Part shown: in pieces, positions 1-35,505 of the stretch
How positions within the stretch are numbered: the stretch's first letter is position 1
How the letters are laid out: each line of letters opens with the position of its first letter
Source of the DNA: Inonotus obliquus
Lineage: Eukaryota > Basidiomycota > Agaricomycetes > Hymenochaetales > Hymenochaetaceae
Length of the DNA stretch: 64,000 nt
NCBI GenBank assembly: GCA_032164295.1
Contig: JAJHTX010000005.1
Location: 2,418,001 to 2,482,000 of the forward strand
Reading direction: 5' to 3'
Made by a program: the position numbers and the translations under genes
Notes under the pieces: model-generated
What the model saw: only the letters and a program-made list of their open reading frames with translations
Database searches by the model: none
Told to the model about the DNA's origin: nothing

Positions 1-1
1 G

Positions 2-1377: not shown

Positions 1378-2050
1378 ATGTATACGGTGAAGGACTACGA
1401 TGCCAAAGGCATCTTCAATCTGAGACTGGCTGTCATCGTACTCGCCGTACTGACTGGAATCAATATTATACTCCCCGTTTTCATTTCTGCGCCTCCCGTG
1501 ATACTCGCGGATGCCGATGCAGTGCGAAAAGAGTCAGTACAGGGTGAGTAGTCAGCCTGCATTCTTGGAGTGTTTTAAGATTTATATTCCAGGCGAGGAA
1601 GCTCACCCGTTCGAATGGGAGTTATCTCTCAAACAAGTCGCACTCACAGTCGAGGACTCGGTCAATTTCCGAATCGACACGACCGAAGGCGCCGAACAAT
1701 GGCGTGCTATTCGACCACCAGGTAACGGCTACATCACCCTCGGAGAAGGATCAGACAAGCACCGATATCGTCTCGCGATGTTCCATGCACTCGATTGTCT
1801 CGATCTAATTCGCCGGAACGTCCTGCAGAGAAAAGCAGACAGGGAAACACCAGCATCACCCGAAGCACATTTCTGCTTGGATTATCTCAGGCAGACGATC
1901 CAGTGTCGATCGGACATCCAGCTGGAGCAAGTGCGAAGCGAATATGGTCCGAAATCTGTTCAGCCGTTCGTCACCCATACGAATTGTCGGGATTGGTCGA
2001 AGGTGTATGCGGAGTTTGGGATGCTGGAACGTAATGATGCACAATCATGA
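1378..2050 (+). CDS. UstYa-like (DUF3328) oxidase, gene 2, with altered HxxHC motifs
   Basis: Two exons, 1378-1543 and 1593-2050, are joined by a 49-bp intron (GTGAGT...TTCCAG) and give 207 aa. Residues ~12-35 form a membrane anchor (FNLRLAVIVLAVLTGINIIL). The rest is a UstYa domain with FHALDCLDLIRR, HFCLDYLRQTIQC and the conserved THTNCRDWSKVY. Compared with gene 1, the first HxxHC motif reads HALDC (second His replaced by Asp) and the second reads EAHFC. The presumed metal-binding histidines are therefore altered, and the protein may be inactive, a partner subunit, or a variant with different chemistry. It starts at the first ATG before the membrane anchor and is divergent from gene 1. Confidence 0.85.
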
Positions 2051-6817: not shown

Positions 6818-9800
6818 CTATAGCCGAATACTTTCAGGTGGTCCAAGATAACTCGGACGGACGCCACCGGTGTCTGAAAGTTGCTCAACGTCTAATCCAT
6901 CAAAGGACACGGACAACATACCGATTACAATCTTTTGCACGACAACCGCCGGTTCAACCATCCACAACTAAAGAAAAATCAGCCTTCAAATTCCTGAAAG
7001 TACCCATTTACTGACCTTCAAGGTATGCGCACCGGGAGGAGCAGACCAATTTGTCACTACGCTCACGATAGCATTCGCCACAAAGCCATCGTTCCCGTCC
7101 CATTGTAAAGGCAAGGTTCCTGGAGTGGAAGATGGAATGAAAGCGACAGTCTGAGGCGATTGCTCGTCCATTTGAACGGCAATTTTGATTGGTCTAGCTG
7201 CTCCCATACTGTTAAGGGTAGGTGATACTAGCACGTTCACCGAGACGCTTCCAGATCCTCTAATCGTGTTAAAGTTGAAAAAGTCGTATTCGCTAGAGTC
7301 CGTATTCATGAGCTGCTTTCTAATGAGTGCCACCGTATTTTTGCTCACATACTGGGCCCTGACCCCTCCGTAAAGTTGTTGAAATCGTTGCCTGATCGTG
7401 GCCAAGGAGTCACGCCAGACAGTGTCTTCCCGTGGTCAGGCATCTCAGTCCAGGTTATTCCTGCTACTGTCGTATTTCGAGACGAATGCGCAGCCTCGAT
7501 AGAGATGCCACCATCCCCTTCCACGAAGCCTGTGCTTAGAATATCAGTAAAAGAGATGCAGCGCCGCTCCCTTCGGACATACCTCTGAAACCGTTCGGGA
7601 CCACAGTATGATTTGCGACAAAGAAGAGTGGGACGCTCAGAGGCATCTGATCCTTGGCAGTTGCAACGAAATTGATCTGTGCACCTTGTACACCTCGGGC
7701 TTTACTCCAATCAACCGTTGCTTCAACTCGGACTTCGGGATTTGAGGGCGATACAGTACCCTTGTTAGGAGTTAGGTTGAGCCAAGAGACATTTGACGTT
7801 GCGGTAAAGGTGAAGGGTACTGGCCCTCCGGCGCCAACATCGATGAAACGGGAATTGAATGGTACGAACGGATCAAGCGTTAAGGTGAAAGGCGGACAGC
7901 TGTAGCCCTGAGTACATTGATTTGGATTATCTCCAGGCCTTATTGAAGGAGTTGTGAGATTATGCAACAGATAAATGGTCAGTATACATACCAAGCTGCT
8001 TTCGTACCTTCGGGGGATATCCGCATCACTCCAGCCAAGCTTTGTTTCTTGGGCTGAACGCGAGAAATAGGTGGCATGCTAGTTGCAGACTCGTGAGTAA
8101 CGGAGGTTTGACGAGTTAGTGTGGGCATACGTGTTAGACATCGGCTGTTGCCAGTAAAAATATTGGATGTGAGTCTGGTCCATCATACTGCGGGACGTAG
8201 TGAGCAAGTCATTTCGCCGAGAAAGTACTAGGTAAGATAACACACTGATCCCATTTGCCATCGAGGAGCTGGTGGTATTGCGTCTCGATGTCGTAGTCCT
8301 GGGCGAACAAATCCTCAACCTGATCCGCTAGATTGTTCATGCTCAAACGGCCCTGCGTAGCACGAAGATTGTTCATCCCTTGGGCTATCCACATTTTTCC
8401 GAGGGTCGAGCTTGCCAATATTGGGTGTTGTACAGTCTCAAAGAAAGCTGGTTGAAACTCTGGAGACAGGCTGCTATAGATCTTCGTCGATACATCAAGA
8501 AGTGAATCCCACGCCGCCACAACATTCTCCGCTCTTGTTCAGTCAGTAATGTGAATATACGACAATGAAACACGCATACTCTCGGTAATCCGTAAGGCTA
8601 AACGTCGTTCCGTTTAGTAGCTCAGGCTTTCGCCTATTGTTCCATCTCGTGAGGTTGGTCATTATTGTAGTGACCTCCTTCGCTGTGGATGGTGGTAAAT
8701 CGAACTCGCGTTGAGCCCATGAAGAGACGAAGTTGTCCAAGTTATCGAAAGACCAGCGTGAAGCATTCCAACCATAGGATAGGAAAAATTCGGTATTGAG
8801 CTCGTAAGGTTTGAGATCTCCGACGTTCACGATCCATATCCGCGTAGCCTTCCGTTCAATAGCTTGTGATAACTGATCAAAGGTCTACAAACGGAGTCAG
8901 GGGTAGATCAATTGTTATGAGACCTGAGATGACCTTGGACATTTGCGAGCTCTAATAATATGTCATGAGAATCCGAACCTTGCACGCCAAAACGAAACGG
9001 AGAGTCTACCGTTATCCATTTATAGTCCCTTGGATCCCCAACCTATTGCTTCCAAGGTCATTGAATAGAGTGTGGGAAAGAAGTAACGTACGTACGTAGT
9101 CATACTGAATTGATGCAACGTCAGAACCAGGCCGAATATAGGGATGCATTTCTTGATACCCACATGATAGTATATCCCTGCTCCTCCTGTTCTATTGAAC
9201 TCACTGGGAATTGGTAGCCGAACCATATTGCCCCAGCTAATGCAGGTAAGAATTCGTTGAGGACAATCCGTAGACTTGAATATAGGGTGCGTACTTATCG
9301 TCACTCCAGAGCAATGTTATGTCTTCTGGGACACGCATCCCGTCATCGTAGTATCCTAGAACTTCCTTGTCTGAGGCAAGATTGGGTTAGAGAGTACGAC
9401 ACGAGAAACGCTTGCTAAAATACGAACACAACGTCCATACCTGCGGTATAGTTGACACGTCCGTCTGATTGAAGACATTCATAAGAATTTGTCGCTGATC
9501 GGCGATTATCCTCTCCAGCAACTCGATATTCGTTCCCTCAGACAATGGCACTGGTGATTGATGAACTTTCATGTCTCATTGATAGAAGAACACTCACAGT
9601 CGCCATTGCCTCGCATACCGACGGTGAAGATATTCTCGTACGATTTTGAACGTTCTGTACCGTTTACCCAGAAATTATAGATAAACTGTGAATTAGTTTC
9701 ATAGTCCCACGGGCCAACTCCCAACAGATCCCATTCGACTGGGATAGAACGCATCATGGGTTCTTCGTGGCTTAGTGACTACGTCAGACACAGAGTAAGA

Positions 9801-10893
9801 TTACCAGTTTTTTCTTGTACGTACCTCGTGCCCATGACGATACCAAACCAATCCGCGAGCGGCTGATTCTGCGGATCATCAATACCAAAAGCACTATTTA
9901 CGTTTGCTTAGCTTCTTTCATTAAAGATCTATAAAATATAGAACCTGCTCCACTGCGCTAGAAGAGAATCTGAATGAGTACACTTACATACAAGTCTAAA
10001 AGAAGTCCATTGAATACCTGGCCAAAGGTAGTTCCCTTTCAAACGCAATAAGAGTTCGAATCTAGTAAAAGAGTTACTCTTGCATTAAAACCCCGGACGG
10101 ACCGTACTAACACCTTAGAATAAAATAAATGATTGAACGGAGATCCAGTCAAATCGGCTCCTGTACCGTTAGTAAATTTCTCCATTGCCCAGTTTTGCAA
10201 AGCTGGTTGTTCGTCATTGAAAAAGATGCCCCGATACTTCACGGACGGAGATCCATGCGAGCATCCTGATGGGGAGAAGAAGACTGAGGGGCTCTTTGTC
10301 GTAGGTACATCCGCCCACCTATCATATCGCCCAGATCAATTAGCACGTACTAAATTCACAAACGGATCTACTCACCAATACCAAGGAGACACTCCGATTT
10401 GCTCTGAAAGATCGTATAAAGCATAAATAGTCCCACGCTTGTCGGCTCCGATGATAAGATACGCCTTCGAAACGCCATGAAGAGGATTGTCAACCATTCT
10501 CGTCATGAATGCCTCCCATTTCCCGGAGACAGAAGAAACGTCCAGTCGCGTGTGATTAACAATTGAGTCTATCAAGGACGATTTCCCGAGAGTTCCAATA
10601 ATTATGGGCGGCACAACGGTCTTCTTCACCGAGGATGTTACATTAGATAGCTGAGGCAGTTTACCGGTGACCTTTTGAATGTCAGAGGCAAAGTCGGCTG
10701 CAGCGCGCTGAACACCGGGCCAGTCATCTTCGGATATGAACAACGGGGCAACCGAGTGTCCATCGACGAGGGAAAGCGCGGAGGGCGAGGGCTTGAAAGA
10801 CACGCAAGTGTCTTGGCCGATGGCGTAGACACCACAGAGAAAAGACAAGTAACCGAGGAAAATAGTACGTCGTGAGCCACTGACGAGATGCAT
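6818..10893 (-). CDS. Secreted GH115 xylan alpha-glucuronidase, copy 2
   Basis: This is a full-length tandem paralogue of the gene at 2158-6221 with the same exon order. It begins at 10893 with a signal peptide (MHLVSGSRRTIFLGYLSFLC, cleavage probably near GVYA) followed by IGQDTCVSF, as in copy 1. The N-terminal domain has PPIIIGTLGKSSLIDSIVNH, KAYLIIGADKRGTIYALYDL and SEQIGVSPWYW. The middle exons match copy 1 block for block (LKPYELNTEFFLSYGWNASR, FVSSWAQREFDLPPST). It ends MVEPAVVVQKIVID / TGGVRPSYLGPPESIRL with TAG at 6818-6820. In the N-terminal domain roughly three quarters of residues match copy 1. No disabling change is visible. The pair probably acts outside the cell on glucuronoxylan, possibly with different substrate size or expression. 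Confidence 0.93.
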
Positions 10894-20191: not shown

Positions 20192-21726
20192 TCAATCGGG
20201 AAATGTCAATGTTGGATTCTTCCCAGCGTTGCGTTCACTTATATAATCATTCCAGCCCTTATTTATGTCTCTAACTGCACTTGTTCCCTGCCCCCTCATC
20301 TTCACTTGCGAGCTACTATCCTTATCTGCTATGTCCTGTTTTCTTTCTCTGTCTTTCTGTAAGTGCTCTCTTATTTTCTTGTCTCTCTCGTTCTTCTGGT
20401 GATCTTTTACTTTCTTGTCATTCTGATCTGCTATTGTCTGCATGTGTTGCAAATTGTCCAAATTAGTCGGGTACACATCAGAGAACTGACATGTGAATCA
20501 GTTACATTGCCAATCGCTGAAGGACTGTAATCATAACATACCATTCCATCCTTATTTGGAAAGAATTTAATATATTTTGTAGGTTCAATCCAAGAAGGAT
20601 TTCTCATCTGAACGATGAATTTGCTGTATTTCAAAACGACAGGGTCGCGTTGACCATCAAGTTTTGTGGTTGGTGAGACCGCAACAAAATCCTTCCAATC
20701 ATTTCTTTGTTCAGCATCTACTGAAGTTATTCTTGCCAGATTTACATATTTCTCATACTTATTATCTATTTTATTGATCACAATGTGGTAAATGCCGAAT
20801 TTTTCGGTTCTGTCCATGGTCGCAGGATCCGTCGGTTCAGCGACGGCAATAAGCATCCCAGGCTCAATGACGTCAAATGACGTATCACCAAAAGTGAGTT
20901 CGAGACCGTTCACATTCTTCAGAATCCTTTTCTGTTTGTATTCTTTTACATTCTTGTCATTCTCTTCAGCTATTTCCCGTAATCGTGATTCGTTGTCTGG
21001 ACAGGTCTCAAGTACATCAGAGAACTGAAATGTGAATCAGTTACTTTGCCAATATTATTTGCTGAAGGACTGCAATTAATCATAACATACCAAGCCTTGA
21101 TAAGGATGGGATATTATTTCTGTAGGCACAACCCAACAAGGACGTTTCATTAAAACTTTTGATTCTTTGTATGTCAGAGTGATAGGGGCGCGTTGACCAT
21201 GAAGATGTTTGGTTGGTGGTGAGACCGCAACAAGTTCATCGCACTTATCTGTTCGCTCAGCAATGTCTCTCTCCGTTGCTTTGTTTAGCGTAGATATTGT
21301 TGCCAATTCTAAATATTCCCCATCCGCATTTTTACCGACCACGATGTGCAAACAGTGCCTTTCCTTGTTTTTGTCCGTGCTATGTTGGCTAGGAATATGC
21401 CTCATGATTCCCAGATAAGCGAATGGATGAATGGTCATGATGGGATTAGCACTTAAAAGCATCCCAGGTCGTATCTCTTCAAACGGCTTTTTGACATATG
21501 GGATATCTTCTAGCTTAAGACCAAGATGATTGTTGGATCCGCGAGCTGTCGGGGGCCCAGACTGATAACTGGGAGCTGTTGTCCCGGCCCGGGGTCCGGT
21601 GGGGATTCTAGGAGGCTGATTATAAGCTGTCCCACTGCTTGTATTGCCTGTCGAAGATCGTCCCGCATCTCTGCCGTGGTGTCCATGGTGTGGGCCGCGT
21701 GGCATTGTAGGGACTGGGCGTGGCAT
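20192..21726 (-). CDS. Unrecognised two-domain repeat protein, array gene A
   Basis: Three exons (21091-21726, 20542-21024, 20192-20485), all joined in phase 0, give about 470 aa. I do not recognise the family. Layout: ~55 aa of low-complexity His/Gly/Arg/Ser sequence; repeat domain 1 (~130 aa, with RPGMLL, CLHIVVGKN, YLELATIS, ELVAVSPPTK, HGQRAPI, CWVVPTEI); a charged helical linker (LREIAEENDKNVKEYKQKR); repeat domain 2 (EPGMLIAVAE, YHIVINKID, VNLARI, DFVAVSPTTKLDGQRDPVVL, PSWIEPTKYIKFF); and a charged C-terminal coil (IADQNDKKVKDHQKNERDK). No signal peptide or membrane segment is present, so it is probably intracellular. Both introns start GTATGTTATGATT and end near TGATTCACATxTCAG. Start at 21726, with a second in-frame ATG 21 bp later inside a tandem duplication. 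Siblings are B (26576) and C (30560). Confidence 0.8.
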
Positions 21727-22420
21727 TGTAGGGACTGGGAGGTGACTTGGGAAGAGTGCAATATACGAGATATGTGTTGGGTGGGAGGTATCAGAAATGT
21801 GCCTCTCTTTATAGGAGAGAAAGATGCAATCCTCATGCAAGGGCATATGCACAGTATCGAATTGTCGAGCGCGTACATGACCTCAATGCGCTATTACATA
21901 ATGCCAGAAATGTCCGCATAGTTGTGGCGCTTGTGCAAAGTGCACATAAGAGAACTGGAAACAATGCGTGATAGATATCAGAAATTCTGCTCAACTGTGG
22001 CACTTTCGCAAAATGAATTCATGAAGAAATTTCCATACAAGTCAGGAATTCTGGCCAGTTGTGCACCTATGCAAAGTAAATACATGAGACATTGTCACAA
22101 TAAGCAATTCGTGACAGAAATGTTTGCATAGTTGTGGCACTTACGCAGAAAAACGAATATATGGCTGACTAATGAACAAAGGTAAAGCACAAAGCTGTCA
22201 AAAACCAGGGTCAGCAGTTTCGTGCACTTTGCATAATTCCATCCTCTTTGCTATGTCGCCACTCGTCAGACATGCTTGGCGCGAGTTATTCAGTAGTCGC
22301 AAGTTTGCATTCTGAGCTCAGAAGTTGGAGGATGTATTCGAAAGAACGGCAAGTGGGGAGTCACCGATTGCGAATATGCACGACTAACACAAGCTGTCTA
22401 CACCTCCCGATTCCCAGAGT
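21727..22420. repeat. Duplicated upstream region with ~70-bp tandem repeats (copy A)
   Basis: This noncoding block separates gene A from the truncated helicase copy. From about 21905 to 22180 it is built of four degenerate tandem units spaced ~64-74 bp, starting at about 21905, 21979, 22043 and 22114. Each begins CAGAAAT or similar and contains GTTGTGGCACTT-like and CAAAGTGxATACAT-like segments. The block recurs at 27579-28220 and 32018-32710. The copy at 32.2-32.98 kb is almost identical (offset 10290): translations of 22248-22487 and 32538-32777 differ at one residue. It may act as an upstream activating region. Confidence 0.8.
21807..21813 (-). promoter_or_regulatory. TATA box of array gene A
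   Basis: CTATAAAG read on the minus strand, ~85 bp upstream of the start of gene A. The same box, in the same context (CTATAAAGAGA followed by conserved CACCTCCCA-like DNA), precedes genes B and C. Confidence 0.65.
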
Positions 22421-23216
22421 TCACCGGTGGAACACTAATGTAGCACTGCGACTGTACACCTCCTTTAGATTCTGTAATGCCGTCTAGCAACAATCAAAAT
22501 ATCAGCATGTCCCTCCGAATAAACACAGAAAGGACCGCCATACATCGTACGCATCTTCCATCCCCTCAAATTCCCCATCCTTCACTCTCATCCGCGCAAC
22601 GCGCTCAAGCCTTCCTTCACCAGCATCACGCAACATATCCTTGAAGAATTTCGCTTCCTGGTCCTCGACGAGTGTCCATGCGTCCTGCGCGGTGGACGTA
22701 CTTGCGTATGTCTAAGGGTGCGTCGTAGGAGACGACGTGAGCGACGTGGGGGATGTCGAGTCCTCGTGCGACGAGGTCGGAGCATACGAGACTGTGGAAG
22801 AAGGGGGGTGTTAGGATGGGGCATGAGCGCGTAATGGAAGAGAAAGGAACTGACATGTCGATTTCCTGTCTCTTGAACTTGTCAAGAATATTCTTCCTCT
22901 CTCCAGGCAGGAAGATCACTCGAGTATGCCTGGGCAATGACACGCTTTCTATAACCCTCATTCGACTCTGTAGAGTTGTCACAACGGCTAACTGTACACT
23001 ATCAGTTAGATGGAAGACAGATCGTGAAAAACGCTTCACCTTCAAGCCTCTGCCCTTAGCAATATAGCTTCCAACGTCTCCTGCACGTGTAGTGCAAGGT
23101 CTCGAGTTGGCAGCATAACCAAGGCGCGCAACCGAGTCGCTATCCGCGCGCAGAGGATCTATGCTGCGGCCTGCTGTTAACCATGAGGATACCCGCGGGT
23201 TCACTACTCTCGCCTC
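22421..23216 (-). pseudogene. Truncated and deleted DBP6 helicase copy 1
   Basis: Homologous to the 3' part of the intact helicase gene at 32711-35116. It keeps the C-terminal exon, the terminal intron and part of domain 2 ([28 protein letters not shown]), but it is broken. A 29-bp deletion between two TGCGTC copies (near 22679) removes the end of motif VI and shifts the frame. An internal deletion of roughly 0.8 kb (joined near 22970) removes motifs II, III and the intervening part. The 5' end stops at the same place as in the other copies, just after the exon ending PIVE, so the Q motif and Walker A are missing. It is non-functional as a helicase. Confidence 0.85.
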
Positions 23217-23857
23217 AACGATAGAAAGCTACTTGATACGTATCACTCGATAAGAATAAATCTATCCCCCCAGACCCCAGATGGTAAGAAGAGATCGACA
23301 TGATCACACCTTGCCATTTGAGGGTTGATGTATCCTAATTGGTACAAGAAAATTTCATTCATTGTTACATAACTACGTCAAACATTCAAATTATGTCATC
23401 GACATCTACATATGGACGGAACTTGCTGTAACAGGCAAGAAAGGGCTATTTGTTTAGTTTTCTGCTTGCCTTCTGCCAAATTTTAGATCTGCGGCCACAG
23501 TTGCAACATACTACATGCCTCGTTTGCAATGCGCAATTCTCAGAGTGCTTGTTTGGATCGTATGCACTCATACCTGGGCTTCTGGACTTCTACTGATACG
23601 GACCGTTCGAATATAGTGTTTCTGCTGTATCTACTGCGAATAAGTTGGGTCTGAAGGGATAATTACCTCAGGTGCTGACGGTGTCAGTAAGGCATTCTTG
23701 GGTGGGAGACCGTGATGCCTCGTGATCTACATGACTAATCACCCCTATATATTACTCCCTGCATGCCGGTCGGACGACGGGTTCTCCAGCTTCAGAATCG
23801 ACGTACTCCTAAACCCCATATACAACTACAAGAGTATATCAACCTCTGACAACTGCA
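23217..23857. other. Unique segment inside the array, with a 5S-rRNA-like fragment
   Basis: A 0.64-kb stretch not shared with the other array units, upstream of the 51-aa gene. At about 23640-23727 the plus strand resembles the 3' half of a 5S rRNA (for example TTCTTGGGTGGGAGACCGTG followed by TGCCTCGTG). The 5' half cannot be aligned, so this is at most a relic. No coding frame was recognised in the rest. Confidence 0.35.
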
Positions 23858-24089
23858 ATGGCATTCCTGACCTTCACCGTCCCTGTTGACGCTTGCAGGC
23901 GTGTTCCGTGCTCAAAGTGTGGCAAGACGACGTGGGCGGTAAGCACTTATCTCGATAGTACACACCTCGATTTAACGCACTTGATTATTCCCCTTTCTAC
24001 CTTTTCTATAATAGGGCTGTGGCATGCACATAGACTCCGTCATGGCAGATGTCGCTCAGGAGGACAAGTGTGAATGCCCACGTGAATAG
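23858..24089 (+). CDS. 51-aa CxxC small zinc-binding-like protein
   Basis: Two exons (23858-23938 and 24015-24089, phase 0; intron GTAAGC...ATAATAG) encode 51 aa. The core is CSKCGKTTWAGCGMHIDSVM followed by a C-terminal KCECPRE. This CxxCGKxTWxGCGxH...CxCP pattern is one I associate with small conserved proteins in fungi and bacteria; the cysteines and histidine are arranged to bind one zinc ion, but the function is not established. It is too short to be found from a single open frame. It lies between two dead helicase copies, in unique DNA inside the duplication array, and is oriented against its neighbours. Splice sites are good and the join restores the motif, so I regard it as real. Confidence 0.8.
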
Positions 24090-24274
24090 TCAAATTGGAT
24101 TGTATGCCTATATACGTTCACTTGTTGAACTAACTTCGCTAATCGTTGTCAGGAAATGAGAGCGGCCGCATCATTTATTGATCGGAGCAACGATGAAGTC
24201 AAGTTGACGATAATATATAATGAGTAACTGAATAAATCTGAGTCCTCATTCAAGTCCTCGCCAGTCCTCAGGCA

Positions 24275-25745
24275 AGCGTGAGCTATTCAATAAGGGTGAT
24301 AATCGCAAATTGGAGGGTGTGTTCGAAAGACCGGCAAGTGAGGAGACGCCAGTTGAGTATATGCACGAGTAACGCAAGCTATCAGACTCCCGACGAGTGC
24401 CCACGCGTCACCCACTCGTCCTGCGCGAGCCGTGCGTTCTGCGCGGTGGACGTACTTACGTATGTCTATGGGTGCGTCGTAGGAGACGACGTGAGCGACG
24501 TGGGGGATGTCGAGTCCTCGTGCGACGAGGTCGGAGCATACGAGACTGTGGAAGAAGGGGGGTGTTAGGATGGGGCATGAGCGCGTAATGGAAGAGAAAG
24601 GAACTGACATGTCGATTTCCTGTCTCTTGAACCTGTCAAGAATATTCTTCCTCTCTCTGGGAGGAAGATCACTCGAGTATGCCTGGCCAATGATACGCTT
24701 TCTAGGACCCTCATTTGGCCCTGTGGACCCAGATTTCGACCAAGTGAAGTATGCATCCTCAAAGTACTCGAAAAGCTTAACCAGTCTCGCCGTCGACTCC
24801 GCACTCTTCGTAAACACAACCGCATTCGTCACACCCCGCTTGTGAACAAGATGAAACAGTATAAGGGGTTTTCGAGTCGCAGAGGTTGTGATGTAATGTT
24901 CCTGCAAACCAGCAGGCATCGCAAAGTCTTCCGTACTGAGGGATGCAGCAGCCGAAGTCTTTCCACCAAGGTCAGTCGAGGCCTGGACGACGAAGTACTT
25001 CGGGTCGCGTAAACCAAGCGCGGCTATTCGCGCCGGATCACGCGTGAGCGTTGCGCTGAAGAGGAGCTTTTGACATGAGGTGTGTTTGGGGTCATCGTAG
25101 TCCGTGGTGATGTGTGGGAGATGTGTAGGTGCGAGGGCGTCATGATACATGTTACTCAGTAACGACGGTTTTGAAGGCTCCAGGGATAAAGCTGAAACGG
25201 CGTCATGCGTGTGGCTTGAGCGCATTGAGCACTTGAGAAAGCCAATCTTGAAAGCTCTGTGCAAGAAGTCGATCGGCTTCGTCAATGAAGAGGAATCGGA
25301 GATGTTGAAGAGTAAACCCAGGCGTTCCGTTGAGATGATCCATGAGACGACCCGGTGCACATATCAATACGTCAACCTTGCTTGAGACTCCTCGTAACCT
25401 AATGGGAATAGGATATAATCACCTGTCCGAGACCGAGTGTGATCTAGGTGTAGCCTACCTATAACTAGTTGATTTTGTTCATGAGTGAGCGAGTGATGAT
25501 CTGTCACGACAGTCAACTGTACACTATCAGATAGATGGAAGATAGATCGTGAAAAACGCTTCACCTTCAAGCCTCTGCTTTTAGCGACAGCTTCAAACAT
25601 CTCCCGCACGTTCAGTACAAAGTATCGGATTGGAAGCACAACGAAGGCACGCAACTGAGTCACTATTCGCGCGGAGATAATATATGCTGTCGTTACCCAT
25701 ATTGGAAACTCCGGCAGGGTTACTATTCTCACCTCAACAATAGGA
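24275..25745 (-). pseudogene. Truncated DBP6 helicase copy 2
   Basis: The segment 24275-24383 matches the array's upstream block and then jumps directly into helicase sequence, so the last exon and the [10 protein letters not shown] region are deleted. The remaining helicase part (24384-25745) covers motif II to motif VI but has DEEESE-type changes at the DEAD box region, HRAER in place of HRAGR in motif VI, and an 11-bp net deletion that shifts the frame after NALKPHA. The same frameshift occurs in copy 3, so both descend from one broken ancestor. The 5' end stops near the exon ending PIVE, with no Walker A motif. Non-functional. Confidence 0.85.
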
Positions 25746-26575
25746 ATGAAGGGCACGTCTCACTCGATATTCCCAAAAGGGTTGCGAATCAGAACTCAGA
25801 TGGCAAGAATTGGAGAAAGTGCATCGAAAAGAATGGGCACTTGCGGCGTATATGCACGAATACTAGTACTGCCAGCTGTTCTACTTTTCCGAGTCCTGTT
25901 CATCTGGATCTACATCTCAGGGCTTGGTCTTGTGAGTGTATGCCCCACTTAGCTTCTGCAATGCCGTCCATGAGAAGCAATTAGTCGGTGAGAAGTGGGT
26001 GAAGAGGTGAAGGCTGAGGAAGCGGAAGGCAAGTCTGTCTCGATAACCTTTATTTTATTATTTTAAGTATGTGATGCGCATCGCTTATGTAACAAGGTTG
26101 CTGATCTACACCTACCCAATAATCCTCCTGCCACCATCAGCAAGGCTGCCTGCCGAAACCTCCTCAGGACCTGCAGCTGCCTTGCTGGTAACAGATGTGC
26201 TGCATCACACTTGAGGGAAACTGGCTGCTAGAAGCGGTGCCTTATTTTATTTCGTGAGAGAGAAAAACAGATTCGCTTATTCTTCATGTTTGATAGCAGT
26301 TTGCACACCACTAGTACTGACATCCTCAACATCCACCATGCGTCCGAAGCAGGTCGTCAAGATTAATATTCACATTCCCTTTCCTCTGAAAGCATGTTCA
26401 TCCCAGTCAGCACCAAATATCACAGTTAAACATAATTCTATTAGAGGTCACATCATAGTCCATACAAGCCAGATGACTGCTACATGTCACCTAGCAACCA
26501 TATATTTCACTGCATATTCACTCTTCCACGACTCGGACCCTTGTCACACACATCCGTCCATCAGCTACTATGACC
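25746..26575. repeat. Array spacer downstream of gene B (copy 1 of spacer)
   Basis: Noncoding DNA that joins the 5' breakpoint of helicase copy 2 to the 3' end of gene B. It aligns with 29763-30559: both contain GTTCTACTTTTCCGAGTCCT, GCTTCTGCAATGCCGTC, and further on AAACATAATTCTATT followed by AGGTCACATC. Short frames in it are not conserved between the copies, so I do not annotate a gene. It marks the other end of the duplicated unit. Confidence 0.7.
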
Positions 26576-27578
26576 TCACCTCCATTTTGGCGATTTCATT
26601 TTGAGCTCTTTTGCTTTCTGGGCCTCCTTAATCTTTTCCTGTTTGTATTTTCCTACTTTCTCGTTATTCTGGTCTGCTATTTCCTTCAAGTATTCTTCAT
26701 TAATATTGTCTACATTGGTCGGATATACATTATTGAACTAAAATATGAATCAGTTAGTTTGCCAATATTATGTAATCGCTAAAGGAAGTACTGCAATTAT
26801 GACATACCTGACCATTCTTATTTGGATAGTAGTAAATATTATCTGTAGGCAAAATACAAGAATGATCTCCCATCACGACCTTTGATCCATTGTATTCCAA
26901 CACGACATGCTTCCGTTGACCTTTGGATGGTGGGGTTGGGAAGACTGAGACAAGCTCTTGCGGCTTTTCAACATTGCTGTCCAATACTAATTGAGATATT
27001 CTTACTAATCTTAAGGTACTCGACTCCATATTGACCACGACGTGCATATGGCCACCGTATCCCGCCCCGCCCTTCTCATTCATTCCCAGGTAATCAAAGG
27101 GATCAATATCAATATTGCCCCGTTTGATGGCTGCGAATACAAGCATCCCAGGCTTCATGTCTTCAAGTGAGATTATACCACATGGGACAAGTTCGCCCCT
27201 CTCATTCCACAGTTTCGTTTCATTATCTTCTTTTATACTCTTCAACAAGCTAGACGCTGGCGTTTGTTCATGAAGCTGATCATTATTGACAACTGTTGTC
27301 GTACTGGCGCGTGTGTTTGTTGTTGTACCGGGTTGTGATGTACGACCCTGAGAATTATCTGACACTGTCGGATCGGTGCGGGTGCCAGGGCCAGCGGCAC
27401 GGTCAGTTCTCCAATTTGTTGATGTCTGGCTGGCGTGTGGGGCCCTTCTGTCACGCGATTGTTCCGGAGTCTGATTATTAGCTGTCGTACTGGCTGAACT
27501 TGTTGGACTTCTCCAATGTCTGTCCAAATTTTTCCGTGAGCCCGTACTGGCGCGTCCGCCCCTCGGTCCTCCTGACAT
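26576..27578 (-). CDS. Unrecognised one-domain repeat protein, array gene B
   Basis: Two exons (26808-27578 and 26576-26737, phase 0) give about 310 aa. The N-terminal ~110 aa are low-complexity Ser/Thr/Arg/Gln-rich sequence. One copy of the repeat domain follows (KPGMLVFAAIKRG, MHVVVNMES, LRLVRISQLVLD, ELVSVFPTPPSKGQRKHVVL, ILPTDNIYYYPN), then after the intron a charged coil starting FNNVYPTNVDN with IADQNNEKVGKYKQEKIKEA. Compared with A and C it lacks the second repeat domain. Its intron resembles the first introns of A and C (ATAATATTGGCAAA, CTAACTGATTCA), so the loss probably involved domain 2. No signal peptide. Start is the only in-frame ATG near the conserved CCTACA context, ~70 bp after the TATA box. 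Confidence 0.78.
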
Positions 27579-28220
27579 TGTAGGGACTGGTAGGTGACCT
27601 GGGAAGAGATGAGTGTTGGGTGGGGGGTATCAGAAACGCACTTCTCTTTATAGGAGAGAAGGATGCAATTCTAATGCAAGGGCATATGTACAATACATAC
27701 ATGTGTAGCTGAAATTGTCCCAATGCGTAATTACATAATGCCAGAAAAGTCTGCATAATTGTGGCGCTTGTGCAAAGTGCACATAAGAGAAATGGCCACA
27801 TTAATGCGTAATAACTTCAGAAATTCTGCTTAACTGTGGCACTTAGGCAAAGTGAATTAAGAAATTGCCATACAAGTCAGAAATTCTGGCTAGTTGTGGC
27901 ACCTATGCAAAGTAAATACATGAGACATTGTCACAATACGCAATTAGTGACAGAAATGTCTGCATAGTTGTGGCACTTACGCATATATGGCTTACTAATG
28001 AACAAAGGTAAAGCGCAAAGCTGTCAAAAACCAGGGTCAGCAGTTTCGTGCACTTTGCATAATGCCATCCTCTTTGCTATGTCGCCACTCGTCAGACATA
28101 CTTGGCGTGAGTTATTCAGTAGTCGCAAGTTTGCATTCTGAGCTCAGAAGTTGGAGGATGTGTTCGAAAGAACGGCAAGTGGGAAGTCGCCGCTTGCGAA
28201 CCCCTCCCGATTCCCAGCGT
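27579..28220. repeat. Duplicated upstream region with ~70-bp tandem repeats (copy B)
   Basis: Second occurrence of the array's upstream block. The tandem ~70-bp units are recognisable at about 27740-27990 (CAGAAAAGTCTGCATAATTG, CAGAAATTCTGCTTAACTGT, CAGAAATTCTGGCTAGTTGT, CAGAAATGTCTGCATAGTTG). It is more diverged from copies A and C than they are from each other and has small deletions. It continues directly into helicase copy 3. Confidence 0.75.
27647..27652 (-). promoter_or_regulatory. TATA box of array gene B
   Basis: TATAAA on the minus strand within CTATAAAGAGAAG, ~70 bp before the start of gene B; same context as in genes A and C. Confidence 0.65.
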
Positions 28221-29762
28221 TCACCGGCGGGACATTAATGTAGCACTGCGACTGTACACCTCCTTCAGCTTCTGTAATGCCGTCTAGCAACAACATGTCA
28301 GCATGTCCCTCCGAATAAACACAGAAAGGACCGCCATACATCGTACGCATCTTCCATCCCCTCCAGTTCCCCATCCTTCACTCTCATCCGCGCAACGCGC
28401 TCAAGCCTCCCTTCACCAGCACCACGCAACATATCCTTGAAGAATTTCGCCTCCTGGTCCTCGACGAGTGTCCATGCGTCACCCACTCGTCCTGCACGAG
28501 CCGTGCGTCCTGCGCGGTGGACGTACTTGCGTATGTCCATGGGTGCGTCGTAGGAGACGACGTGAGCGACGTGGGGGATGTCGAGTCCTCGTGCGACGAG
28601 GTCGGAGCATACGAGACTGTGGAAGAAGGGGCGTGTTGAGTTGGGTGATGTGCGTAATGGAAGAGAAAGGGACTGACATGTCGATTTCCTGTCTCTTGAA
28701 CTTGTCAAGAATGGACTTCCTCTCTCCGGGAGGAAGATCACTCGAGTATGCCTGGGCAATGACACGCTTTCTAGAACCCTCATTTGGCCCTGTGGACCCA
28801 GCTTTCGACGAAGTGAAGTATGCTTCCTCAAAGGACTCGAAAAGCTTAACCAGTCTCGCCGTCGACTCCGCACTCTTCGTAAACACAACCGCATTCGTCA
28901 CACCCCGCTTGTGAACAAGATGAAACAGTATAAGGGGTTTTTGAGTCGTGGAAGTTGTGATGTAATGTTCCTGCAAACCAGCAGGCATCGCAAAGTCTTC
29001 CGTACTGAGGGATGCAGCAGCCGAAGTCTTTCCACCAAGGTCAGTCGAGGCCTGGACGACGAAGTACTTCGGGTTGCGTAAACCAAGCGCGGCTATTCGC
29101 GCCGGATCACGCGTGAGCGTTGCGCTGAAGAGGAGCTTTTGACATGAGGTGTGTTTGGGGTCATCGTAGTCCGTGGTGATGTGTGGGAGATGTGTAGGTG
29201 CGAGGGCGTCATGATACATGTTACTCAGTAACGACGGTTTTGAAGACTCCAGGGATAAAGCTGAAACGGCGTCATGCGTGTGGCTTGAGCGCATTGAGCA
29301 CTTGAGAAAGCCAATCTTGAAAGCTCTGTGCAAGAAGTCGATCGGCTTCGTCAATGAAGAGGAATCGGAGATGTTGAAGAATGAACCCAGGCGTTCCGCT
29401 GAGATGATCCATGAGACGACCCGGTGTGCATATCAATACGTCAACCTTGCTTGAGCCTCCTCGAAACCTATTGGTAATGGTACATATAATCAACCGTCTG
29501 GGATCGAGTGTGATCTGAGTGTAACCCACTTCTCTTGACCTGTACTTTTTCTCATGAGGGAACGAGTGATGACGTACACCATCAGATAGATGGAAGATAA
29601 AATCATGAAAAACGCTTCACCTTCAAGCCTTTGCCCTTAGCGACAGCTTCAAGCGGCTCCTGCACTTGTAGTGCGAGATCTCGAGTTGGTAGCACGACCA
29701 ATTTCCGCGCGGAGAGGATATACGCTGTCGCTAGCCATAAGGACTCCAGAGGCGACAATAGG
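28221..29762 (-). pseudogene. 5'-truncated DBP6 helicase copy 3
   Basis: The most complete dead copy. It keeps the C-terminal exon, the terminal intron, motif VI ([19 protein letters not shown]), the domain-2 exons, [11 protein letters not shown] and a DEAD box ([20 protein letters not shown]). It shares with copy 2 an 11-bp net deletion that shifts the frame after NALKPHA. The homology ends just past the exon that carries PIVE in the intact gene; the Q motif, Walker A and whole N-terminal region are absent, and no alternative start region is present. One intron (near 28620-28680) differs in length from the intact gene, which supports that segment being an intron. Possible antisense or noncoding transcription cannot be judged. 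Confidence 0.87.
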
Positions 29763-30559
29763 TTTGTGTCGAAAGCTACTCGATACTTGTCACTCGATAT
29801 CCCTAAAAGGGCTGCGAGTCCGCACTAAGATAGCAAGAAATTGGAGAAAGTGCATCTGGAAGAATGGGCACTTGAGGAGTCCGCACTGTCAGCTGTTCTA
29901 CTTTTCCGAGTCCTGTTCATCTGGCTCTACATCTCAGGGCTTGTTCTTGTGTATGTCCCCCTTAGCTTCTGCAATGCCGTCTATGAGAAGCGGTTAGTCC
30001 GTATATCCGCGAGTGAAGAGGTGAAGGCTGAAGACGAGTCGTATGCGATCCACATCGCTTATGTAACAAAGTGAGCTATAACCTGGAACTAGAAACGAAA
30101 CTCCGACTGCTGTTTATACGCAAAAACGAAGTCAGATATCGTCTTCCTTCGATAGCAGTTTGCACAGTACATCCTCAACATCCACCAAACACCCGAAGCA
30201 AGTCTTCAGCCTTCACGTCTTCTCTCCTCTTTCCTCGCTTCGCGTGCCGCCCGCCTTCAGGGCTCCTTAATATTGTCTCGCCGTTTCTCTCGTCTGTCAC
30301 TCTTCCTCAAGTCTGTCTGTTCCTCATAGTCACATCAACGTACCAAATATCATGGCCAAACATAATTCTATTCGAGGTCACATCGTAGTCCAAGCGAGCC
30401 AGAGGACTGCTGTATATCACCGTATCTATTCAGATTAAATGGAGGTCTTTCACGTATCGGATCCTTGTCGCACCCCTCCATCCATCGACTATCTACTTCT
30501 ATGCTATGCGAATGAGAAAGGACACGTTTATGGGACGTACACGAAGTCTGATTCCCCGA
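29763..30559. repeat. Array spacer downstream of gene C (copy 2 of spacer)
   Basis: Counterpart of the spacer at 25746-26575, linking helicase copy 3 to the 3' end of gene C. It contains the same landmarks in the same order. A plus-strand frame of 77 aa (29841-30074) is present but is broken in the other spacer, so I do not call a gene. Confidence 0.7.
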
Positions 30560-32017
30560 TTATGTAGATTTGAGATACTTGGCAACGTGTCCAAATGCAT
30601 TGTTTATTCCTTCAAGGCCCTCGGCATTCAATATTATTCTGCGTAGTTCTTTTTTCTTGGCAATCTCTTCTCTTACTTTCTTGTGATTCTCTTTTGCTAC
30701 GTTCTGCAAATTTTTTATATCGTCTGGATAGTAGGTCGGGTACACATGAAAGAACTATAATGTGAATCAATTGATTTGTCAATCACTGAAGGACTGCAAT
30801 CATGACATACCTTTCCATTCTGATCTGGATAATCAATATATTCTGTAGGCTCAATCCAATGATTTTCCATGACAATGTTCAAATTGTTCTGTTTGTTTTT
30901 CAAAACGACAGGGTTGCGTTGACCGTCAAGTTGTTTAGTTGGGTAGACTGCAACCAGCTCTTTCCACTTCTTGGTTAGTTTAGGGAGATGACCATAACCC
31001 CTTATCCCTTCACGCATAAATGAACACATTCTGACCAACCTCAAATATTTCGGTCCCTCATCCTTATCTATTTTATCGATCACAATGTGATAAAGACGCC
31101 TCTTTTTATTTACATCCACAGCATCCGTATTGATTTTCAGATAATTCATCCCTGTTTCGGTGGTTGCAAAAATAACCATGCCAACCGTTATGTCTCCAAA
31201 TGACACATCATTCATACTGTTTACGGGGTTTCCTATTTCATCCTCCAGACTGTTTGACATTGAATTTATGTCATCCCATACCTTCTCGTCATTCTCTTTT
31301 GCTCTTGTCTGTACGTGCGTTTCGTTGGCTAGACGGGTCTTGTATACATTACGGAACTGAAACATGAATCAGTTAATTTGCCAATATTATTTGCTGACTG
31401 CAATTATAACATACCTTTTCATTATGATATGAACGGAGTATAATATATTCTGAAGGCTCAACCCAAGAAGGATTTATCATCTGAACCACTGAATCATTGT
31501 ATGTCAAAACGACAGGGTCGGGTTGACCGTCCAGTAGTGGAGTTGGTGAAAGCGGCAGAAGCTCTTTCCACTTTGGCGTTAGGACAGGGAGTTCTTCAAC
31601 ACTCTTTATGCCTAATGAAGATATTTTGACCAATTTTAACCAATTCCCAAGCGTATCGTTTCCCTTAGCGACCACGATGTGCAAAAAGGCCTTTCTTCTC
31701 AAATCCTGTTGCATATTCCCCCTTATTCTCAGGTAAGTGTATGTGGGAAGGGTCGTGTAGGTGGTTGCATATATAAGCATCCCAGTCTCTATCTCATCTA
31801 ACGACAAATCAACCTTTGGGACTTCTTCTCCGTTCGCATTCTTCAGATTAGGACCTGTCGAATTCTGAGGCTTATAATCACTGACAGTCGTTGTCATTGT
31901 ACCAGCACTACCGCCTCTCCGAGTCCGAGGACCTGAAGCTCTGTGAGGCCGATCATCAGTACTGCCTCTCGAAGATTGTCCCGCACGTCTGTGGCCCGTT
32001 TCCATTTGATTTGACAT
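30560..32017 (-). CDS. Unrecognised two-domain repeat protein, array gene C
   Basis: Three exons (31415-32017, 30811-31356, 30560-30754), all phase 0, give about 447 aa. Layout is as in gene A. A ~60-aa Arg/Ser/Gly-rich N-terminus is followed by domain 1 (ETGMLIYATTY, FLHIVVAKGND, LKLVKISSLG, ELLPLSPTPLLDGQPDPVVL, PSWVEPSEYI), a linker, domain 2 (TVGMVIFATTE, YHIVIDKIDKDEG, LRLVRMCSF, ELVAVYPTKQLDGQRNPVVL, HWIEPTEYIDYP), and a charged tail beginning FFHVYPTYYPDD. By eye only about a third of residues match gene A in domain 1, far less similar than the flanking noncoding DNA. No signal peptide or known domain. It is co-oriented with, and ~0.7 kb downstream of, the intact DBP6 gene. Confidence 0.8.
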
Positions 32018-32710
32018 TGAAGGGCCTGAAAGACGACCTAGGAAGAGTGCAATTTACGAGATGAGTGCTGGTTGGGAGGTGTCCGAAACATGCTTCTCTT
32101 TATAGGAGCTGGATGCAATCCTATTGCAAGGGCATATGTACAATACATAGTACATGTGTAGCTGAAATTGCCACAATGCGCAATTACATAATGCCAGAAA
32201 TGTCCGCATAGTTGTGGCGCTTGTGCAAAGTGCACATAAGAGAAATGGCAACAATGCGTAATAAATATCAGAAATTCTGCTCAACTGTGGCACTTTCGCA
32301 AAATGAATTCATCAAGAAATTTCCATACAAGTCAGGAATTCTGGCCAGTTGTGCACCTATGCAAAGTAAATACATGAGACATTGTCACAATAAGCAATTC
32401 GTGACAGAAATGTTTGCATAGTTGTGGCACTTACGCAGAAAAACGAATATATGGCTGACTAATGAACAAAGGTAAAGCACAAAGCTGTCAAAAACCAGGG
32501 TCAGCAGTTTCGTGCACTTTGCATAATTCCATCCTCTTTGCTATGTCGCCACTCGTCAGACATGCTTGGCGCGAGTTATTCAGTAGTCGCAAGTTTGCAT
32601 TCTGAGCTCAGAAGTTGGAGGATGTATTCGAAAGAACGGCAAGTGGGGAGTCACCGATTGCGAATATGCACGACTAACACAAGCTGTCTACACCTCCCGA
32701 TTCCCAGAGT
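32018..32710. repeat. Duplicated upstream region with ~70-bp tandem repeats (copy C)
   Basis: Third occurrence of the block, between gene C and the stop codon of intact DBP6. The tandem ~70-bp units span about 32195-32470. From about 32220 onward, and on into the DBP6 3' end, it is nearly identical to 21930-22680, which points to recent duplication or gene conversion. Confidence 0.8.
32099..32104 (-). promoter_or_regulatory. TATA box of array gene C
   Basis: TATAAA on the minus strand within CTATAAAGAGAAG, ~83 bp before the start of gene C. Confidence 0.65.
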
Positions 32711-35116
32711 TCACCGGTGGGACACTAATGTAGCACTGCGACTGTACACCTCCTTTAGATTCTGTAATGCCGTCTAGCAACAATCAAAATATCAGCATGT
32801 CCCTCCGAATAAACACAGAAAGGACCGCCATACGTACGCATCTTCCATCCCCTCGAATTCCCCATCCTTCACTCTCATCCGCGCAACGCGCTCAAGCCTT
32901 CCTTCACCAGCATCACGCAACATATCCTTGAAGAACTTCGCCTCCTGGTCCTCGACGAGTGTCCATGCGTCACCCACTCGTCCTGCACGAGCCGTGCGTC
33001 CTGCGCGGTGGACGTACTTGCGTATGTCTATGGGTGCGTCGTAGGAGACGACGTGAGCGACGTGGGGGATGTCGAGTCCTCGTGCGACGAGGTCGGAGCA
33101 TACGAGACTGTGGAATAAGGGGGGTGTTAGGATGGGGCATGAGCGCGTAATGGAAGAGAAAGGAACTGACATGTCGATTTCTTGTCTCTTGAACTCGTCA
33201 AGAATATTCTTCCTCTCTCCGGGAGGAAGATCACTCGAGTATGCCCGGGCAATGATACGCTTTCTAGAACCCTTATTTGGCCCTGTAGACCCAGCTTTCG
33301 ACGAAGTGAAGTATGCTTCCTCAAAGGACTCGAAAAGCTTAACCAGTCTCGCCGTCGACTCCGCACTCTTCGTAAACACAACCGCATTCGTCACACCCCG
33401 CTTGTGAACAAGGTGAAACAGTATAAGGGGTTTTTGAGTCGTAGAAGTTGTGATGTAATGTTCCTGCAAACCAGCAGGCATCGCAAAGTCTTCCGTACCG
33501 AGGGATGCAGCAGCCGAAGTCTTTCCACCAAGGTCAGTCGAGGCCTGGACGACGAAGTACTTCGGGTTGCGTAAACCAAGCGCGGCTATTCGCGCCGGAT
33601 CACGCGTGAGCGTTGCGCTGAAGAGGAGCTTTTGACATGAAGTGTGTTTGGGGTCGTCGTAGTCCGTGGGGATGTGCGGAAGATGTGTAGGTGCGAGGGC
33701 ATCATGATACATGTTACCCAGTAACGAAGGTTTTGGAGACTCCAGGGATAAAGCTGAAACGGCGTCGTTTATGGAACGTGCGTGTGGCTTGAGCGCATTG
33801 AGTACTTGAGAAAGCCAATCTTGAAAGCTCTGTGCAAGCAGTCGATCGGCTTCGTCAATGACGAGGAATCGGAGATGTTGAAGAGTGAACCCAGGCGTTC
33901 CGTTGAGATGATCCATGAGACGACCCGGTGTACATAACAATACGTCCACCTTGCTTGAGCCTCCTCGTAACCTATTGGTAATGGTATATAATCAACCGTC
34001 TGGGATCGAGTATGATCAGGGCGTAACCTACCCCTCTTGGCCTGTAACTAGTTGATTTTGTTCATGAGTGAACGAGTGTTGACCTGTCACGACGGCTAAC
34101 TGTATACGATCAGATACATGGAAGATTGATCGGGAAATACGTTTCACCTTGAAGCCTCTGCCTTTAGCAACCGCTTCAAACGTCTCCTGCACTTGTAGTG
34201 CGAGATCTCGAGTTGGTAGCACAACCAAAGCACGCAACCGAGTCGCTATTCGGGCGGAGAGGAGCTATACTGCCGTTAACCGTAAGGACTCCAAACGGGC
34301 TTGCTATTCTCACCTCAACAATGGGAATCACATACGCCAGGGTCTTCCCACTGCCGGTCGGCGCAGACGCGCAAACATCTCGCGGAGGATCATAAGGAAG
34401 GTACAACGCGCGTAAACGACGCTGCGGCGGTAGAAGAAATGGAAGCAAAACCGTCTGGACTATACAGAAAAAACGTCAAAGAAAGCGAAGATGGGCCGGA
34501 TGATCGTACCTGCGAAGAACTGGGTTATCCCAAGCTCATGAAGCCTTTTCTTCATTTTCTCACTGATGACGGGTAGATCCCCTGCATTTGGATTGCGCCC
34601 TGCATTTAGAGCGTCGATAGGAAGAGTCTTTGAAGGGTCGACTAACTCTGCGCCAAGGAGTGCCTTGTCGAGGCCTTGAAGCGCAAGAGTTGCCTTTGAA
34701 GGGGCATCTGGGGCAACAGGCAATGGGAAAGACGGTAGTCCAGCAGGAGGTGTTGGTGACCTAGTGCGAGACTCTTCATGTTGTTCATTCACTGTTCTAG
34801 CTTCAGAGCCAGGGTCTGAGAAAGCCTCAGCATCCGAATCGATTTTTTGTCGTTTTCGTGGCGGTTGCCTAGTTTCGGACACATTCAGAGTGGCCTGAAT
34901 GTGTTCTTCCTCTCTTTCTGATTGAGAGGATGTATTTTCGTTATCCTCAGATTCCTGGGGGGGATGCGATACGACCGTAGTGAGAGGCGATGCATGGTTT
35001 GTGTCTGTCTTCCTTAGTTTGCGCCTCTCCTTCTTTCTCTTGAGATAGCGTACTTTGGCCTTTGTCTTGCCCTTGCCTTTTGGCGGGAGGCCTGTTGTTG
35101 TCACAGCGACAAACAT
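32711..35116 (-). CDS. DBP6: DEAD-box RNA helicase DBP6/DDX51, intact copy
   Basis: A nucleolar helicase needed for 60S ribosomal subunit assembly. Exons: 34510-35116, 34314-34459, 34032-34264, 33171-33972, 32834-33107, 32711-32773. The basic, charged N-terminus (KAKVRYLKRKKERRKLRKT) and acidic region fit Dbp6. Motifs in order: Q-motif region GITQFFAVQTVLLPFL, Walker [50 protein letters not shown] box [71 protein letters not shown] and [16 protein letters not shown]. The stop-free 63-bp segment 33108-33170 is called an intron because removal restores EIDILVCSDL and the segment varies in length in a dead copy. Start 35116 is the first in-frame ATG. It is the only array copy with an ATP-binding motif, so it is the functional gene and the source of the fragments. 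Confidence 0.93.
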
Positions 35117-35505
35117 CAAGGAAATAAAGTATAAAAAGTAAAATATTGAGGAGTGCGCGGATTAATGTGACTGAATATGTCGAATGTCACAAGGTGTCAC
35201 AAATATTGACAAATATGGCAGTGTGCCAGGCAATTCATCTTCCTCACCCATCACCGCGCCTTTCCCATCCTATCCGCCCGACGCGCCCTCAGTGTCGCCA
35301 GAGAAAGCTAGCAAGCAACACTAACGGGCAGCCGAGCGACGGACGAGAGCTGATTGAGGACGAGGTTGTTTAGTTGATATTGAGGCTGTGTCTTTCTGTA
35401 CACCCGATAAGGGTTGTTTTCGACTCGCCGACGCTTTGCTATCCCCATATTTTATTCTTTTCGACATTTTCACCGAATATAATTCTCCTCCAGCAACAAA
35501 GCGCG
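35117..35505. other. Divergent promoter region between DBP6 and the AT-hook/Myb gene
   Basis: About 390 bp between two divergent starts. TTTTTATACTTTATTTCC lies just upstream of DBP6 on the minus strand. No other coding signal was seen. Confidence 0.45.

What the first reader, a model, noticed from the sequence alone, without database searches (positions are those of the whole stretch)
20192..32710. Coding regions of A, B and C are far more diverged than their promoters, introns and flanks
Flanks of A and C (21.93-22.68 versus 32.22-32.98 kb) are almost identical, and introns share long blocks such as TTGGCAAAxTAACTGATTCA. By contrast domain 1 of A and C matches at only about a third of residues, and the N-termini are unrelated. 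Conserved noncoding DNA around rapidly changing protein is what diversifying selection plus gene conversion produces, as in self/non-self recognition, host interaction or genetic-conflict genes. This is the strongest candidate for an undescribed system here.
Basis: partly seen in the sequence, partly recalled or inferred. Interest (0 to 1): 0.88.

Follow-up and report, generated by a model that had tools for sequence, protein, structure and literature searches.

The report
Fast-changing fungal genes in conserved frames
Three neighbouring genes of a mushroom-forming fungus belong to an undescribed family whose proteins change unusually fast while the DNA around them stays nearly the same, a pattern seen in genes for recognition or genetic conflict, although what these proteins do is unknown.

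Summary
A, B and C (minus strand) are open 470, 310 and 447 aa genes with phase-0 introns; a fourth copy, D, lies about 46 kb left of A. The "flanks" are promoter plus truncated copies of a DEAD-box helicase gene. Divergence K climbs from 0.003-0.06 (over 400 bp upstream) to 0.11-0.23 (last ~200 bp) to 0.54-0.69 in exon 1, except A-D, 0.19. The second is not: domain dN/dS is about 1 (0.7-2.2), against 0.05 in a control pair. All ten A-D exon indels are multiples of three. The gradient recurs in pairs on contigs C9 and C2. Over four pairs the folded domain gives joint omega 1.45 (p 0.014), with N-termini 1.09 (p 0.50); site tests are alignment-sensitive (12 of 19 runs). Hymenochaetaceae-like genome; no homologue or Pfam family found; possible SH3-like, weakly MazF-like barrel. 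Best reading: a lineage-restricted diversifying family with exchange-prone flanks, perhaps recognition or conflict. Function unproven.

The parts
20192..21726 (-). Gene A, 470 aa, two copies of the beta domain; exons 21726-21091, 21024-20542, 20485-20192; a later in-frame ATG at 21705 is also possible
   Evidence: Splice model with open frame and GTATGT...AG introns, both phase 0; no transcript evidence
21025..21090 (-). A intron 1 (66 bp)
   Evidence: 100% identical to D intron 1, 91% to C intron 1 in the intron-only alignment
20486..20541 (-). A intron 2 (56 bp), 95% identical to A intron 1 over 56 aligned bases
21727..22533 (-). 5' flank/promoter of A; K to C 0.003 distal, 0.025 mid, 0.21 proximal
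22505..22910 (-). Truncated helicase copy (hel-A), two open pieces
24389..25376 (-). Truncated helicase copy (hel-b), in two frames, one piece with a TGA
   Evidence: 91% identical in protein to the C-flank helicase
26576..27578 (-). Gene B, 310 aa, one beta domain; exons 27578-26808, 26737-26576
28301..29445 (-). Truncated helicase copy (hel-B), three overlapping pieces in different frames, one with a TGA
30560..32017 (-). Gene C, 447 aa, two beta domains; exons 32017-31415, 31356-30811, 30754-30560
32025..32790 (-). 5' flank of C, homologous to those of A, B and D
32795..35161 (-). Most complete copy of the DEAD-box helicase gene: 385-aa open frame with DEAD and Helicase_C matches, PTRDLA at 34216 and GSGKT at 34355 in other frames, N-terminal open frame 35161-34463; probable source of the truncated copies
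   Evidence: exon structure and intactness not established

Best explanation
A, B, C and D are members of an undescribed multigene family, at least 15 loci (fragments included) on five contigs of a Hymenochaetaceae-like fungus. The C5 members have a polar, disordered-looking N-terminus (by eye), one or two copies of a beta domain, and after each domain a phase-0 intron and a helical-looking segment. SHOWN: the C5 genes are open and their A-D exon indels keep the frame; in the folded domain the protein changes about as fast as, or faster than, synonymous sites; distal flanks are much less diverged than coding exons (A-D, with its recent coding tract, is the exception), and introns are less diverged too; divergence rises towards the start codon over the last 200-400 bp; the pattern repeats at loci on two other contigs. 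INFERRED: tandem and dispersed duplication with upstream DNA leaves long homologous frames; non-allelic conversion or unequal exchange keeps homogenising those frames; tracts that would overwrite the coding exons are mostly not retained because distinct proteins are favoured (occasional coding conversion is seen, A-D). Most likely function, with low confidence: intracellular binding proteins in recognition or genetic conflict (allorecognition, defence against mobile elements or viruses, or drive), where novelty is rewarded.
For: K rises from distal to proximal flank in 6 of 6 C5 pairs, and from proximal flank to exon 1 in 5 of 6 (not A-D). Same in G-H (0.041, 0.063, 0.194, coding domain 0.24) and M-N (0.04-0.07, 0.116, 0.146, coding dN 0.42, dS 0.31). 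dN/dS over domain 1: A-D 1.62, A-C 1.20, A-B 0.85, D-C 1.14, D-B 0.73, C-B 1.85; exon 2: A-D 2.17, A-C 0.72, D-C 0.73. Joint omega of four pairs with no shared branch if A-D and C-B are sisters: 1.45, p 0.014. Control paralogues in the window, 174 codons: 0.05. Noncoding flank read as codons gives mean 0.99, range 0.58-1.60, over 4 regions x 6 frames (flank divergence 6-10%, below that of most coding pairs). All ten gap runs in the A-D exon alignments are multiples of three. Without constraint 2.0-2.9 stops per gene would be expected at 0.05 substitutions per site and 14-21 at 0.35; none is seen in the modelled frames. A-D mosaic: first half of domain 1 against the rest, Fisher p 7e-12.
Against: Of the domain-1 and exon-2 pairs only C-B rejects omega = 1 upward (p 0.039, one of nine tests, uncorrected), and with slightly different limits it gives 1.54, z 1.49. 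Two N-terminal pairs reject omega = 1 downward (D-C p 0.011, D-B p 0.013, few codons, saturated dS); the other four N-terminal estimates are 0.33-1.01. Last-exon estimates are erratic (0.01-2.11, saturated dS in two). Site tests: 9 of 9 untrimmed runs but 3 of 10 runs with a 3-column margin around gaps reach 0.05, so misalignment may contribute; the runs share sequences. Single-difference codons show no significant nonsynonymous excess in 9 of 9 pairs. Exon dS exceeds intron and flank K, which positive selection alone does not predict. Gene models were chosen as open frames. Domain limits were set after seeing the data. No expression, population or cross-species data. Function rests on analogy.
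Confidence: 0.5

Rival explanations
1. Relaxed constraint. Dispensable paralogues drift at about the neutral rate with a few core positions kept, and only the flanks were recently homogenised by conversion; sequence divergence in the exons then blocks further conversion there.
For: Omega near 1 for most domain pairs; dS much larger than flank K; several members look degraded: N has a frame break (or an intron that I did not model), E's second domain is split with a repeat between the halves, J lacks a normal N-terminus.
Against: Four open genes on C5; all ten A-D exon gap runs multiples of three; no stops where 2-21 per gene were expected, depending on divergence; domain joint omega 1.45; a class with omega 1.8-2.6 in 16 of 19 site-model runs.
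Confidence: 0.27
2. Old balanced alleles put in tandem. Deeply diverged alleles of one recognition gene came to lie side by side by unequal crossing-over in the shared flank, so coding is old and flank is young.
For: Divergence decays within a few hundred bp of the coding sequence, as reported for Aspergillus fumigatus het genes (PMC11138114, abstract and section 9 read); coding and flank groupings disagree.
Against: Same pattern at several loci, one pair 230 kb apart, which unequal crossing-over of neighbours would not place; no allele data.
Confidence: 0.13
3. MazF/PemK-like toxins, or a poison-antidote (spore-killer) family.
Confidence: 0.06
4. Secreted effectors or host-interaction proteins.
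For: Fast evolution and apparent lineage restriction.
Against: The N-termini of A, B, C and D are polar, with no hydrophobic stretch to serve as a signal peptide (read by eye; no predictor run).
Confidence: 0.03
5. Assembly or haplotype artefact.
For: Tandem near-identical flanks could arise from mis-joined haplotypes.
Against: One contig, copies with different coding and differently truncated helicase pieces; the flank search listed copies on C5 only (a lower bound).
Confidence: 0.01

Closest known systems
Snake-venom phospholipase A2 gene families (accelerated evolution)
   Same: Multigene family with branches of omega above 1 and diversifying selection outside the scaffold (PMC1783844, passages and abstract start seen). 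That introns and flanks are more conserved than coding exons there is recalled; the Nakashima paper was not held.
   Different: Secreted enzymes with a strong statistical signal; here intracellular-looking proteins and modest support.
wtf killer meiotic drivers of fission yeast
   Same: Fungal multigene family with non-allelic gene conversion, promoters included, and fast change (PMC6526906, passages read; PMC13160552, passages read).
   Different: No Pfam family above cut-off for the A, B and C frames scanned. In wtf, conversion was reported as not restricted to one part of the gene; here the coding exons are mostly spared.
Fungal het (heterokaryon incompatibility) genes
   Same: Coding diversity with a footprint that falls off within 500 bp of start and stop codon (PMC11138114, abstract and section 9); diversifying selection in het-c (PMC3969566, abstract).
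   Different: Those are alleles in populations; here paralogues in one genome, and no Pfam match.
MazF/PemK and tudor-type SH3-like barrels
   Same: Weak fold resemblance of two low-to-moderate confidence models.
   Different: No profile match; no catalytic residues or binding site shown.

Membership tests
MazF/PemK (PF02452) | Profile match | tested here: not met
   No match in the whole genome at E up to 1, while 3 of 14 control genomes ring; none among 11 family domains at E up to 1
MazF/PemK (PF02452) | Fold | tested here: inconclusive
MazF/PemK (PF02452) | mRNA-cleaving activity with antitoxin partner | not testable with these tools
   needs bench work; no partner gene was looked for
Diversifying multigene family (venom-PLA2-like pattern, recalled) | Introns and flanks less diverged than coding exons | tested here: met
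   exception: A-D exon 2 and second half of domain 1
Diversifying multigene family (venom-PLA2-like pattern, recalled) | dN/dS above 1 | tested here: inconclusive
   Domain-only joint 1.45, p 0.014; with N-termini 1.09, p 0.50; site tests 12 of 19 runs
wtf/Spok spore killers | Sequence family match | tested here: inconclusive
   No Pfam family above cut-off for the five A, B, C frames; whether Pfam holds models for these families was not checked; no homologue for C or an 8-row alignment in a word-seeded search
wtf/Spok spore killers | Transmission bias through gamete killing | not testable with these tools
   needs crosses
Fungal het genes | Allelic polymorphism under balancing selection | not testable with these tools
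   one genome only
Fungal mating-type genes | Linkage to STE3 or HD genes | tested here: not met
   STE3 matches only on C9, homeobox-KN matches on C1 and C7; array on C5

The most novel reading that the evidence does not exclude
A previously undescribed fungal recognition or conflict system: a genome-wide family of intracellular SH3-like (possibly MazF-fold) proteins kept as variable coding cassettes inside exchange-prone conserved frames, so that new specificities arise by mutation and cassette shuffling while promoters and introns are held constant.
Probability: 0.12. Interest if true: 0.85.

Novelty: new member of a known kind. Interest (0 to 1): 0.52.

Why it matters
Families whose proteins change at or above the synonymous rate inside conserved frames, repeated at several loci, often mark recognition, toxin or drive genes. 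This one had no match in the protein collection searched, although that collection holds relatives from the same fungal family. If the pattern holds in populations, it points to a tractable set of candidate conflict genes in mushroom-forming fungi, where to my knowledge few have been described.

Tried and rejected
Mating-type linkage: rejected. Homologues outside this genome: none for protein C (E up to 0.01, 3629 candidates) or for an 8-row family alignment (E up to 0.1, 7991 scored); a cyclin from the same window finds four Hymenochaetaceae at 64-76% as its best rows (family), so the collection is not blind to this lineage, but word seeding can miss fast-changing proteins. Sequence relative in the PDB: none for the 11-row profile at E up to 10. 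Pfam on A, B, C frames: only sub-threshold matches for one of five; on 11 domains, four families with one member each, best E 0.0035 for a condensin subunit domain, taken as noise. Foldseek: best E 0.37 and 1.2.

Literature: in the listings I saw no title or abstract start that describes this family; apart from five papers nothing was opened, so this is weak evidence of absence. The genome's species was not identified, which limits such searches.

Fourfold sites: K4 in codons with conserved residues is 0.28 for A-C, lower than the model dS, which would put omega near 2; over all codons fourfold in both, third positions differ in 10 of 42 (domain 1) and 15 of 40 (exon 2). I did not rely on it because the first is conditioned on conserved residues. 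A second control pair was poorly alignable (omega 0.01) and is not used. 3' side: B-C identity is 62-74% for 200 bp after the stop, 38-49% (hardly alignable) to 500 bp, 75-95% at 500-800 bp, so the divergent island includes part of the 3' flank.
Full report
What is there. The window lies on contig C5 (2418001-2482000) of a 36.07 Mb, 30-contig genome. A cyclin at 17908-19167 matches Sanghuangporus weigelae at 76% and three other species at 64-68% as its best rows, all Hymenochaetaceae, so the host is Hymenochaetaceae-like; the species is not established. Genes A (21726-20192, 470 aa), B (27578-26576, 310 aa) and C (32017-30560, 447 aa) lie on the minus strand with phase-0 introns of 56-70 bp. 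A and C hold two copies of a beta domain, B one; each domain is followed by an intron and a helical-looking stretch. A fourth copy, D (377 aa), lies about 46 kb to the left of A (locus L018). These are sequence models; no transcript was seen.

The flanks. Beyond the promoter the flank is a piece of a DEAD-box helicase gene (Pfam DEAD and Helicase_C; closest PDB sequences DDX18/Has1). The copy beside C is the most complete, with GSGKT and PTRDLA motifs upstream of the 385-aa frame, though its exon structure was not worked out. The other four copies (hel-A, hel-b, hel-B, hel-D) are truncated or broken, and the other helicase matches listed in the genome are at most 52% identical (34 matches). 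So the repeated unit is [gene + promoter + helicase], duplicated with one helicase left near whole.

Divergence along the unit. Jukes-Cantor K: helicase 3' part 0.02-0.08; 22150-22533 0.003-0.06; 21950-22149 0.025-0.13; 21760-21949 0.11-0.23; the 33-bp leader 0.07-0.34; exon 1 0.54-0.69 (A-D 0.19); intron 1 0.11-0.27 (A-D 0); exon 2 A-C 0.48, C-D 0.51, A-D 0.06; exon 3 0.70-0.90 (A, C, D); first 150 bp downstream A-D 0.13, A-C 1.04 (unalignable). A groups with C in the distal flank but with D in the coding tract, and the A-D coding region is a mosaic (first half of domain 1 against the rest, Fisher p 7e-12, from the counts). Coding and flank therefore have separate histories.

Rates. My own maximum-likelihood codon model (GY94, F3x4) gives, over domain 1, dN/dS of 1.62 (A-D), 1.20 (A-C), 0.85 (A-B), 1.14 (D-C), 0.73 (D-B), 1.85 (C-B, p 0.039 against 1, uncorrected); exon 2 2.17 (A-D), 0.72 (A-C), 0.73 (D-C). 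Only C-B departs from 1 by itself, and with slightly other limits it gives 1.54, z 1.49. The short, poorly alignable N-termini give 0.02-1.01, two of six significantly below 1; last exons are erratic, 0.01-2.11. Noncoding flank read as codons gives mean 0.99, range 0.58-1.60, over 24 frames, so the code is not biased upward at 6-10% divergence; higher divergence was not calibrated. Tandem paralogues elsewhere in the window give 0.05 at 68% protein identity with saturated dS. Site models on three or four domains: 12 of 19 runs prefer M2a to M1a at 0.05, namely 9 of 9 without trimming and 3 of 10 with a 3-column margin around gaps; the positive class has omega 1.8-2.6 in 16 runs and 6.8-12.5 in three. 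In one search, A1-C1-C2 gave p 0.019 and A2-D2-C2 p 0.089. The runs share sequences. The signal is suggestive and sensitive to alignment.

Constraint. Without constraint 2.0-2.9 stops per gene would be expected at 0.05 substitutions per site and 14-21 at 0.35; the modelled frames have none, though they were chosen as open. The ten gap runs in the A-D exon alignments are 3, 9, 3, 114, 9, 9, 6 (exon 1), 9 (exon 2), 3 and 162 (exon 3) bases, while intron lengths differ by other amounts. Five positions are invariant over 11 family domains.

Replication. The family has at least 15 loci, fragments included: four on C5; three on C9 (917280, 920764, 1115759); one on C7 (1829836); six on C2 (3928987, 4055560, 4156910, 4159914, about 4197461-4200347, 4232765); one weak on C11 (578497). 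G-H on C9: upstream K 0.041 and 0.063, last 119 bp 0.194, coding domain 0.24, intron 0.087, dN 0.283, dS 0.214. M-N on C2, 230 kb apart: upstream 0.04-0.07, then 0.116 and 0.146, coding dN 0.42, dS 0.31. J-G omega 1.22, J-H 0.81. Outside C5 these are the only two pairs in which I measured a gradient; other shared flanks were seen only. Over the four pairs A-D, C-B, G-H and M-N the folded domain gives a shared omega of 1.45 (2dlnL 6.08, p 0.014); with N-termini 1.09 (p 0.50). Domain limits were chosen after seeing the data.

The first half holds (A-D apart), the second does not. The flanks were homogenised or exchanged apart from the coding exons, and the domain exons evolve at about or above the synonymous rate. 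That introns are less diverged than exon dS may reflect splice constraint on 56-70 bp as much as conversion; I cannot separate the two.

Mechanism. Shown: duplication of frames, mosaic exchange, fast protein change, frame conservation. Inferred: conversion tracts reaching into coding are selected against. Guessed: recognition or conflict. The nearest parallels in pattern are venom PLA2 genes, wtf drivers and het genes; none is shown to be a family relation.

Noticed in passing
window 1-2018 and C5:2383736-2385751 (L021); also C5:2386252-2387651 against 2416403-2417500: An inverted repeat, 97.8% identical over 2018 bp and 76-95% in three further pieces, frames the ~29 kb segment that holds copy D; a UstYa-like open frame (1502-2047) lies mostly in the window arm.
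   Followed up: partly
window 2361-6084 and 7010-10756: Tandem paralogues (70-85% DNA identity in six pieces), also present in the left neighbour region; two of their open frames have no Pfam match, and one pair gives dN/dS 0.05.
   Followed up: partly
window 56954-57943 (+) and 60109-61101 (-): Two metallo-beta-lactamase-superfamily open frames facing each other.
   Followed up: no
window 23860-24240: Between two helicase fragments lies what reads by eye as a short spliced gene for a small Cys-containing protein.
   Followed up: no
L022 3654-4283: A repeat 95% identical to L060 9355-10000 starts where the second domain of family member E on C2 is split.
   Followed up: no
L025 1-214 and 3461-3674: The duplicated frame of the C9 pair includes a piece of a kelch-like coding sequence, as the C5 frame includes helicase pieces (kelch named from memory).
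   Followed up: no
C2 3.93-4.23 Mb of 4.36 Mb: Six of the family loci lie in the last 430 kb of contig C2.
   Followed up: no
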